Shown here: piece after piece, positions 17,351 through 30,594 of the stretch | Layout of the letters: each line of letters starts with the position of its first letter | Position numbering within the stretch: position 1 is the first letter of the stretch | NCBI RefSeq assembly: GCF_000526395.1 | Contig: NZ_JAFZ01000001.1 | Span: 868,001-932,000, forward strand | Length of the DNA: 64,000 nt | Reading direction: 5' to 3' | DNA from: Aminobacterium mobile DSM 12262 | Lineage (GTDB): Bacteria > Synergistota > Synergistia > Synergistales > Aminobacteriaceae | Notes under the pieces: model-generated | What the model saw: the letters and a program-made list of their open reading frames with translations, nothing else | Told to the model about the DNA's origin: nothing | The model's database searches: none | Position numbers and translations under genes: made by a program

Positions 17351-18145
17351 TTAACGTAGCTTATTTTTTACGACATTGGATTTTAAGCTCATTAAAACTT
17401 GGCAAATATCTTGAACTTCCCTGAGGGTTAGATTATCGAAGTTCTCGAGCTTATGTATGGTTACATTTATAAAATCATTATTCGATTCTTGCTCTTTGTC
17501 GGGAGCAATGAAAAAAGAGGCGATAGTTCCGGTAAGAATACTTATGAAGCCAATTCCCACCAACATTAATATAGTTGCTATAACTCGTCCTCCTGTAGTT
17601 GTAGGAACCATATCACCATACCCTATTGTAGTTGTAACAAAAGACCACCAGAGGGCGTCGTGGAAATTTATGTTTTCGAAATAGCGGATAGCTATCGCTC
17701 CAAATAATACCATGGAAATGGTGATGAAGAGAACGTATTGGAAGTTGTTCCGCCTCAGAAAGCGGGAAAGATAACGATGGGTTCGGCCAAAGTAGGCTAA
17801 CAATTTAACAATTCTTAAAAAGAGAAAAGAGGAGGGTACACGGAAGAGTTGGAAGAGGCGAATGGCTCGAACGCCTTTGAAAAGGGCGTTAAAGGGTAAA
17901 ATTGCCGTGAGTTCTATTACATGCTCTTTGACGTAGTCCTTTTTATCTTTTGTCAAAAACAAGTGGAGAAAATAATCTGCAACGAAAACACACCAGATTA
18001 TGAAATCAATGTCGTCCAATAATTTTTCTTCGTGAAGGGGAAGTGTTGTTCGTTCTTGAATGATAAGCAAAACGACAGAGAGAATTGCCAGTATGCCAAG
18101 GGATATTTCGTAAATATTTACGTTATTCCTTTTGCTGTTATCCAT
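17351..18145 (-). CDS. Voltage-gated-type potassium channel (six-TM, Kch-like)
   Basis: Encodes 264 residues in the inner membrane. The N-terminal half shows four hydrophobic segments; the fourth (from about residue 90) carries regularly spaced arginines (RAIRLFQLFR), resembling an S4 voltage sensor. The pore loop has the selectivity filter TTTIGYGDMVPTT near residue 170, with S5 before and S6 after. The cytoplasmic tail after TM6 is short, about 50 residues, and has no RCK domain. It likely allows K+ flux for membrane-potential control, and belongs with the Trk and NhaP genes of the window functionally but not positionally. Confidence 0.9.
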   Translation of the reverse strand: MDNSKRNNVNIYEISLGILAILSVVLLIIQERTTLPLHEEKLLDDIDFIIWCVFVADYFLHLFLTKDKKDYVKEHVIELTAILPFNALFKGVRAIRLFQLFRVPSSFLFLRIVKLLAYFGRTHRYLSRFLRRNNFQYVLFITISMVLFGAIAIRYFENINFHDALWWSFVTTTIGYGDMVPTTTGGRVIATILMLVGIGFISILTGTIASFFIAPDKEQESNNDFINVTIHKLENFDNLTLREVQDICQVLMSLKSNVVKNKLR

Positions 18146-24865: not shown

Positions 24866-24893
24866 TTGTAATAATAAATTTATGTGCTATAAT
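24866..24893 (+). promoter_or_regulatory. Extended -10 promoter for the small gene at 25048
   Basis: TTGTAA (24866-24871), a 16-bp spacer, TGC and TATAAT (24888-24893) form a strong extended -10 promoter. Transcription would start near 24900, giving a leader of about 150 nt. Confidence 0.6.
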
Positions 24894-24952
24894 AACAAGG
24901 TTGTGATCGGGTGGTTTAAAAGCCATCTGGAAAAGATATAGCGTTTTTTTTT

Positions 24953-25016
24953 GCGACACGTCCCGTCATGTAGTTAGGGCGGTACCGAAACGTCATACTT
25001 CATGTGTCGCTTTTTT
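24953..25016 (+). terminator. Leader hairpin with T-run (possible attenuator)
   Basis: GCGACAC (24953-24959) pairs with GTGTCGC (25004-25010), followed directly by six Ts. The 44-nt interior contains the self-complementary CGGTACCG. Because it lies between the promoter and the ATG at 25048, it could attenuate the small gene. It could equally be the end of a short non-coding RNA. Confidence 0.55.
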
Positions 25017-25047
25017 CGGAATTTGTTAGGAAAGGTAAGGTAATTGT

Positions 25048-25206
25048 ATGAGTAAGAAGCTTGTTTATGTTAATGAAGTTCCTTTCTGGATGACCCCGGA
25101 AGGTCGTTTGGAAACAGCAGAACTTCGCAACGGCTGGGCTGTAGAGCGGATTATGCTCCGTACTTCCCGCGGGCTTAAAGCCCTTCGAAGTACCGCTTCT
25201 GTCTAG
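25048..25206 (+). CDS. Small basic protein, 52 residues, unknown function
   Basis: An ATG at 25048 with GGAAAGGTAAGG upstream opens a 53-codon frame ending in TAG. The product begins MSKKLVYVNEVPFWMTPEGR, contains ELRNGWAVERIMLRT, and is basic with no membrane segment. It has its own promoter, a leader hairpin, and two hairpins including a clear terminator downstream, so it is a stand-alone transcription unit. I do not recognise the family. The codon usage looks like real coding sequence. Confidence 0.6.
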   Translation: MSKKLVYVNEVPFWMTPEGRLETAELRNGWAVERIMLRTSRGLKALRSTASV

Positions 25207-25223
25207 GCTCGGAAGTTGATTCA

Positions 25224-25290
25224 GAGAGACACTTTTGTCTCTCCCAATTACGTAGATTACAGACCTCTCTCGTGGGAGGTCTGTTTTTTT
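25224..25290 (+). terminator. Double hairpin terminator after the small gene
   Basis: First hairpin: GAGAGAC (25224-25230) with GTCTCTC (25237-25243). Second: AGACCTC (25261-25267) with GAGGTCT (25276-25282), followed by a run of seven Ts. The second is a canonical intrinsic terminator. Confidence 0.85.
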
Positions 25291-29486: not shown

Positions 29487-29489
29487 CTA
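29401..29489. repeat. Direct repeat, 66-bp offset, starting at the ribB stop
   Basis: GTTCCGTGGTTGCCGGCTA (ending 29489 at the ribB stop) and GTTCCTTTGTTGCCGGCTA (ending 29423) are near-identical. The TTGCCGGCTA core is perfect in both. Confidence 0.75.
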
Positions 29490-30233: not shown

Positions 30234-30374
30234 CGCCTGATCCTCTTTCATCCGGACTATTACCGTCGGCTCTGGAATTTAACCAGATCTACATTTTTCT
30301 TTCAGAAAAATGTGCGCGGGCTTTCCAGCTTGAACTGGTATACCGCCGATGGGGAATTCCACCCCGCCCTGAGA
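30234..30374 (-). promoter_or_regulatory. FMN riboswitch (RFN element)
   Basis: On the minus strand the conserved RFN blocks appear in order: CAGGGCGGGGTGGAATTCCCC, ATCGGCGGTA, AAGCCCGCG, then AATTCCAGAGCCGACGGTA and AGTCCGGATGAAAGAGGA. A variable hairpin arm (CATTTTTCTGAAAGAAAAATG) lies between. It is about 100 nt upstream of ribB. A downstream CCCGCCCTG (about 30168-30178) is complementary to the 5' CAGGGCGGG strand and could form the alternative, ligand-free pairing. Confidence 0.95.
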
Positions 30375-30594
30375 ACCGGCTTTAACACTGTAGCTTCAAT
30401 AAGACAAGAAGTCAATAAAATAACATCATAATACTATTTACACAAATACTCCTTGCCATCTTTTATTAATATTCTGTTATTATACTGTGTATGTTTCAAG
30501 TCTGAACATAATGGATAATGCGTCGTATAATAAATAAAAAAGAGCAACTGCGAGAGAGAAGAAGTGTTGGAGCCTAAAATGGAGGTTATTGGTA
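30375..30594. other. Divergent promoter region between ribB and the CNNM gene
   Basis: AT-rich spacer that should hold the ribB leader promoter on one strand and the CNNM promoter on the other. No gene seen. GGAGG at 30581-30585 is the ribosome site for the CNNM gene. Confidence 0.4.

What the first reader, a model, noticed from the sequence alone, without database searches (positions are those of the whole stretch)
24866..25290. Stand-alone 52-codon gene with strong promoter, attenuator-like leader and double terminator
The complete transcription unit around an unrecognised small basic protein is compact. The leader hairpin with T-run suggests conditional expression, possibly a new riboswitch or ribosomal-stress type control.
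Basis: partly seen in the sequence, partly recalled or inferred. Interest (0 to 1): 0.6.

Follow-up and report, generated by a model that had tools for sequence, protein, structure and literature searches.

The report
Synergistota microprotein with attenuator–pseudoknot leader
This is a real, previously undescribed tiny protein gene shared by a large part of one bacterial phylum (Synergistota), and in many of these bacteria it carries a conserved folded RNA leader that probably controls how much of it is made.

Summary
The 52-codon ORF (25048-25206) is a real gene: relatives occur in 73 of 188 Synergistota genomes (36 of 63 genera, E≤0.001), dN/dS is about 0.1-0.2, and Pfam, NCBIfam, PHROGs, PADLOC and PDB have no match. 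It is monocistronic; no neighbouring gene is conserved across families.

The leader has two conserved parts. Part A is a terminator-like hairpin, mostly 98-121 nt before the start codon in six families. In 15 copies just behind tRNA-Asn no promoter follows the tRNA. In nearly all unlinked copies a private extended -10 promoter stands upstream of the same hairpin. That fits an attenuator. In this window the hairpin has decayed and may be weak.

Part B (24950-25035) is a two-helix RNA with a probable H-type pseudoknot ending just upstream of the ribosome-binding site. 15 of 19 pairs show compensatory changes over 24 sequences. It occurs only in front of this gene and matches no Rfam family.

Best reading: a new microprotein family, transcriptionally tied to a tRNA operon in several lineages, under attenuator plus pseudoknot control, probably autogenous. 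Ligand and protein function are unproven. A metabolite riboswitch is possible but less likely. "Double terminator" is one terminator plus one hairpin.

The parts
24866..24893 (+). Promoter: -35 TTGTAA, spacer 16, extended -10 TG-C-TATAAT; start of transcription inferred near 24900
   Evidence: same type of box at the same place in G001, G002 and f8
24908..24952 (+). Leader part A: hairpin 24908-24929 and T-run 24944-24952; decayed descendant of the attenuator-like terminator of relatives
24950..25035 (+). Leader part B: whole covariance-model match (R1)
   Evidence: (90.8 bits; the window sequence was part of the model)
24953..24959 (+). P1 5' strand (pairs with 25004-25010)
   Evidence: all 7 pairs show changes on both sides, 98% of cells paired
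24975..24981 (+). P2 5' strand (pairs with 24991-24997)
   Evidence: all 7 pairs show changes on both sides, 80% of cells paired
24985..24989 (+). Pseudoknot 5' strand CCGAA in the P2 loop (pairs with 25015-25019)
   Evidence: four-pair core invariant in 24 sequences; fifth pair varies, partly compensated
25004..25010 (+). P1 3' strand
25015..25019 (+). Pseudoknot 3' strand TTCGG, just upstream of the Shine-Dalgarno region
25029..25040 (+). Shine-Dalgarno region GGAAAGG / AAGG
   Evidence: sequence; conserved in alignment
25048..25206 (+). Microprotein gene, 52 codons plus stop
25224..25243 (+). 3'-UTR hairpin without T-run; a similar hairpin lies after the ORF in f8 relatives
25259..25290 (+). 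Intrinsic terminator

Best explanation
This is a stand-alone gene for a new Synergistota microprotein family: a 40-55-residue, predicted all-beta protein with core motif KLVYxxGxPxWxxPEGxFxxAE, probably made at a high level. In the lineages around this window it is under two-layer leader control. (A) Transcription starting at the private promoter, or in other genera at the upstream tRNA-Val-Asp-Phe-Gly-Cys-Asn operon, meets a terminator-like hairpin whose 5' arm can instead pair with a CCAGAA-type sequence just upstream, so that only a regulated fraction reads through (an attenuator; decayed and probably leaky in this window). (B) Transcripts that read through fold an element of about 70 nt: P1, P2, and a P2-loop CCGA pairing with UCGG just upstream of the Shine-Dalgarno region. 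Forming or opening this pseudoknot sets ribosome access. Because the element occurs only before this gene, the likeliest trigger is the microprotein itself, as with ribosomal-protein leaders, perhaps as part of a translation-linked role suggested by the tRNA linkage. Shown: gene, family, promoter-like sites, terminator-like hairpins, covarying P1 and P2. Inferred: attenuation, pseudoknot, translational switching, autogenous trigger, high expression, translation-linked function.
For: Family and selection: 73-78 of 188 genomes; dN/dS 0.09-0.18; in five comparisons 16-30 differences at codon position 3 against 4-12 at positions 1 and 2. Part B: (15 of 19 pairs with changes on both sides, reached by 0/500 shuffles; P1 98% paired; slid controls 33-47% paired). 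Gene specificity: (22 of 23 matches directly before the gene; the other, E 0.003, lies in an unrelated coding sequence). Attenuator logic: 15 of 15 tRNA-Asn-linked copies have no promoter-like site above 8/12 between tRNA and ORF; 10 of 12 unlinked copies have an extended -10 box upstream; hairpin at a near-fixed distance in six families; pairing of the upstream sequence with the terminator 5' arm above shuffles, 14.2 vs 10.8 +/- 0.5; different but matching sequences in L001, L015, L033. tRNA linkage. Near-consensus promoters and short leaders elsewhere in the phylum.
Against: The pseudoknot core (CCGA/UCGG) is invariant, so it has no covariation; its fifth pair is compensated in two of the 24 aligned sequences and broken in six. 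Many families (most f4 genera, f5, f10, many f1 genera) have the gene without part A or B, so this control is not essential to the protein. In the window itself the attenuator is weak. No conserved patch of basic residues suggests RNA binding, and pI ranges from 5 to 10. No expression data. The upstream pairing in tRNA-linked copies partly uses the obligatory CCA end, so some complementarity may be coincidental or inherited.
Confidence: 0.5

Rival explanations
1. Part B is a metabolite- or ion-sensing riboswitch that controls a single gene; the protein serves an unknown task tied to that ligand.
For: Compact covarying fold with a conserved P2 loop (GNACCGANA-like) and a probable pseudoknot next to the ribosome-binding site, as in small translational riboswitches.
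Against: One target gene in every genome, no metabolic neighbours, no Rfam match.
Confidence: 0.2
2. Part A is only the ordinary terminator of the tRNA operon, kept as a relic after the tRNA was lost; the leader structure is mainly an mRNA stabiliser or processing site, and the gene is constitutively expressed.
For: In 15 genomes the hairpin lies just after tRNA-Asn; in f4 other 5'-terminal hairpins occur without a T-run; the window copy has decayed.
Against: Unlinked lineages in f1, f4 g37, f7 and f8 keep a stable hairpin between a private promoter and the ORF; in the tRNA-linked genomes the gene has no other visible promoter, so read-through is needed in any case. A pure stabiliser does not explain the conserved loop and its invariant complement.
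Confidence: 0.25
3. Part B is a stand-alone small RNA, and the ORF is incidental.
For: Structured, conserved, with its own promoter.
Against: The ORF is under strong purifying selection and far more widespread than the RNA; the RNA has no terminator of its own between it and the ORF.
Confidence: 0.03

Closest known systems
Ribosomal-protein and other autogenous leaders (e.g. rpsO/S15 pseudoknot, L20 leader; from general knowledge)
   Same: Gene-specific structured 5' leader, pseudoknot near the ribosome-binding site, small protein product, one copy per genome
   Different: No Rfam match; the product matches no ribosomal protein in Pfam or PDB; binding by the product is untested
Transcription attenuators (leader terminator/antiterminator pairs; from general knowledge)
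   Same: Terminator-like hairpin with U-run directly after the promoter, with an alternative pairing partner upstream
   Different: No leader peptide was recognised and no T-box or known aptamer was found by Rfam; in 15 genomes the upstream partner overlaps the 3' CCA of tRNA-Asn and no separate promoter is visible
Small translational pseudoknot riboswitches (preQ1, SAM-II type; from general knowledge)
   Same: Size, pseudoknot close to the Shine-Dalgarno sequence, conserved loop nucleotides
   Different: Single target gene without a metabolic link; no Rfam match even at permissive thresholds
SLH motif, found by analysis of Thermovirga lienii, Synergistota (PMC6429828)
   Same: Candidate structured cis-regulatory RNA of Synergistota found by comparison
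   Different: Reported mostly upstream of S-layer-homology genes, also in Firmicutes; ours is upstream of this microprotein only. The sequences were not compared here

Membership tests
Any Rfam 15 family | covariance-model match to the leader in the window or in relatives | tested here: not met
   no leader match; only sub-threshold chance matches, tRNAs, and an FMN riboswitch elsewhere in the window
Known protein family (Pfam, NCBIfam, PHROGs, PADLOC) | profile match to family members | tested here: not met
   nothing significant (best E 0.03, single members, unrelated families)
Intrinsic-terminator attenuator | stable hairpin followed by U-run between promoter and ORF | tested here: inconclusive
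   met in G001, G002 and in f3, f6, f7, f8, f4 g37 and part of f1; the window copy itself does not meet the criterion
Intrinsic-terminator attenuator | mutually exclusive antiterminator pairing | tested here: inconclusive
   complementarity above shuffles with some sequence change on both sides, but related copies share the CCAGA by descent
Intrinsic-terminator attenuator | signal-dependent read-through | not testable with these tools
   needs RNA end mapping or in vitro transcription
Autogenous (protein-binding) leader | conserved covarying structure unique to the gene of the binding protein | tested here: met
Autogenous (protein-binding) leader | product binds the leader and represses its own synthesis | not testable with these tools
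   needs gel-shift and reporter assays
Metabolite riboswitch | ligand binding by the RNA | not testable with these tools
   needs in-line probing
Metabolite riboswitch | several targets or neighbours linked to one metabolite (usual, not obligatory) | tested here: not met
   one target gene, no conserved neighbours; single-target riboswitches exist, so not decisive
Known protein fold (PDB) | significant structural match of the predicted model | tested here: inconclusive
   two models, pLDDT 80.9 and 82.1; no Foldseek match at E<=0.001; best VIA Z 3.8, rmsd 3.0 over 49 residues, 6% identity

The most novel reading that the evidence does not exclude
A Synergistota-specific, translation-linked microprotein is co-produced with tRNAs by regulated read-through of a tRNA-operon terminator. 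In the tRNA-linked genomes the antiterminator helix includes the 3' CCA of tRNA-Asn, so read-through would sense whether the nascent tRNA has been processed. The microprotein then feeds back on its own mRNA through a new pseudoknotted protein-binding element. Lineages that lost the tRNA kept the same switch behind a private promoter.
Probability: 0.12. Interest if true: 0.85.

Novelty: new variant of a known kind. Interest (0 to 1): 0.6.

Why it matters
It adds an uncatalogued protein family spread through much of a bacterial phylum, and an uncatalogued structured RNA with strong covariation. If the attenuator reading holds, a protein gene is expressed through a tRNA-operon terminator and the switch survived loss of the tRNA and gain of a private promoter, which gives a natural series for testing how such leaders evolve. 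It also gives a small, testable autoregulation candidate in Synergistota, for which a 2022 paper states that no genetic system had been established (PMC9318921).

Tried and rejected
Rfam at gathering and permissive thresholds on the window and five relatives' loci: nothing on the leader. Folding energy alone: no signal. Pfam, NCBIfam, PHROGs, PADLOC and PDB sequence searches: nothing. Foldseek and VIA-align on two models: no significant match; weak rows include choline-binding hairpin modules, cold-shock proteins and nitrite-reductase small subunits (best Z 3.8), not used as evidence. Spread outside Synergistota: viral contigs none, plasmids none, phages only two chance-level rows (E 0.1). One scan of genome contigs found only two further Synergistales records, but it reaches close relatives only. 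Shine-Dalgarno sequestration by the U-run after P1 is predicted in the window but, by eye, not conserved (e.g. L006, L007), so not adopted. rRNA or other mimicry of the P2 loop: a pattern search of the own genome gave only chance-level matches. A partner gene: neighbours differ between families, and even between the three congeneric genomes. A viral-contig scan with the full alignment was not possible.

Full report
What is there. The window lies in a 2.1-Mb Synergistota genome (record titles of close hits name Synergistales and Acetomicrobium; the genome is probably Aminobacterium-like, which is an inference). At 25048-25206 a 52-codon ORF starts with ATG and is closed upstream by an in-frame stop. 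An extended -10 promoter-like site (24866-24893) lies upstream and an intrinsic terminator (25259-25290) downstream. The '+ second terminator' is a hairpin without a T-run (25224-25243).

The ORF is a real gene. A single-sequence search of 61 relatives found 19 genomes with matches, down to E 1e-24 in congeners. A profile found 73 of 188 Synergistota genomes and 36 of 63 genera at E<=0.001; a deeper profile found 78 genomes and 40 genera at E<=0.01, the last few being marginal. Against five relatives dN is 0.10-0.32 and dS 0.64-3.5, with most changes at third positions. The 61-row alignment has invariant L5, W14 and G19 and near-invariant V6 and P17. No library knows it. AlphaFold2 gives an all-beta model of moderate confidence for two different members (pLDDT 80.9 and 82.1) without a significant fold match.

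It is a stand-alone unit. Neighbouring genes differ between families and even among the three congeneric genomes. Elsewhere in the phylum it has near-consensus promoters (10-12 of 12), mostly short leaders and strong ribosome-binding sites. High expression is inferred from this.

tRNA linkage. In families f1 (several genera), f3 and f6 the gene lies directly after tRNA-Asn, in f1 and f6 as the end of a tRNA-Val-Asp-Phe-Gly-Cys-Asn run. In 15 such copies the distance from the CCA end to the ATG is 101-160 nt and the best promoter-like site in between scores at most 8 of 12. Unlinked copies in the same and other families carry an extended -10 box (10 of 12 tested), mostly 160-208 nt before the ATG.

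Leader part A. Between tRNA or promoter and ORF lies a terminator-like hairpin (-9 to -27 kcal/mol, with a T-rich tail), mostly 98-121 nt before the ATG, in f1 (part), f3, f4 g37, f6, f7 and f8. Just upstream a CCAGAA-type sequence can pair with UUCUGG in its 5' arm. The pairing is stronger than for shuffled upstream segments (14.2 vs 10.8 +/- 0.5, 0/500; ten-representative subset 14.8 vs 11.2 +/- 0.75, 0/1000) and is kept by different sequences in L015 (UCAGU/ACUGG), L033 (CUGGAAG/CUUCCGG) and the window (11 pairs). Since the rows are related, the shuffle figures are not probabilities. A hairpin kept between promoter and ORF through a change of promoter source argues for attenuation. In the window the second, terminating hairpin is decayed, so the local copy may be leaky or non-functional.

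Leader part B. A model from 12 leaders finds 23 matches in 188 genomes: 22 directly precede the microprotein gene, including extra copies in G066 and G067; one at E 0.003 lies in an unrelated coding sequence. With weaker matches added, 24 distinct sequences show P1 98% and P2 80% paired, 15 of 19 pairs with changes on both sides, a covariation score of 0.415 against 0.179 +/- 0.014 in shuffles, and 33-47% paired when slid. That alignment was fitted to the model, which leans towards the structure; the MAFFT alignment of 12 sequences already gave 90% paired and 5 doubly changed pairs. The P2 loop CCGA is complementary to UCGG just before the Shine-Dalgarno region in all 24. The core never varies, so the pseudoknot is likely but rests on complementarity, not on covariation.

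Mechanism. Part A would set how much RNA is made and part B how well it is translated. The trigger is unknown. Gene-specific occurrence favours the product itself; a single-target riboswitch and a passive stabiliser remain open. The tRNA linkage makes a translation-related function the first thing to test, but this is a lead, not a result.

Literature. Searches for Synergistota small proteins, signature proteins and structured RNAs found no description of this gene or RNA; only open-licence papers are searchable. PMC6429828 studied Thermovirga lienii and reported the SLH motif, which has other targets.

Noticed in passing
L049 1712-2199, 6702-7189, 13840-14329; L050, L051, L052 (genomes G067, G066, family f7): A unit of about 490 bp (3' half of tRNA-Cys, leader, microprotein gene, 3' flank) is repeated several times, some copies frameshifted or truncated, with unrelated genes between; it looks like duplicated islands or attachment-site repeats at tRNA-Cys.
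   Followed up: partly
window 30236-30380 (-): FMN riboswitch (111.6 bits) upstream of a ribB-like gene ending at 29487.
   Followed up: no
window 17843-17930: ARAGORN's tRNA-Phe call is 88 nt long and does not look like a normal tRNA by eye; Rfam does not find it; probably a false positive.
   Followed up: partly
f4 loci, e.g. L060, L062, L066, L068: 5'-terminal hairpins of differing sequence directly at the inferred transcript start, before a strong ribosome-binding site; apparently covarying.
   Followed up: partly
L019, L074, L076 (family f3): A different leader hairpin CGUC...GACGG with a loop CUCCUCCCCCUC that is complementary to the Shine-Dalgarno sequence GGGAGGG; possible ribosome-binding-site sequestration.
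   Followed up: no
L064 (G186:C166): An f10 genome bin carries an f7-like copy besides its own; probably contamination or transfer.
   Followed up: no
L053 1433 (G043:C14): A second, divergent paralogue of the microprotein in one f8 genome, without the leader.
   Followed up: no
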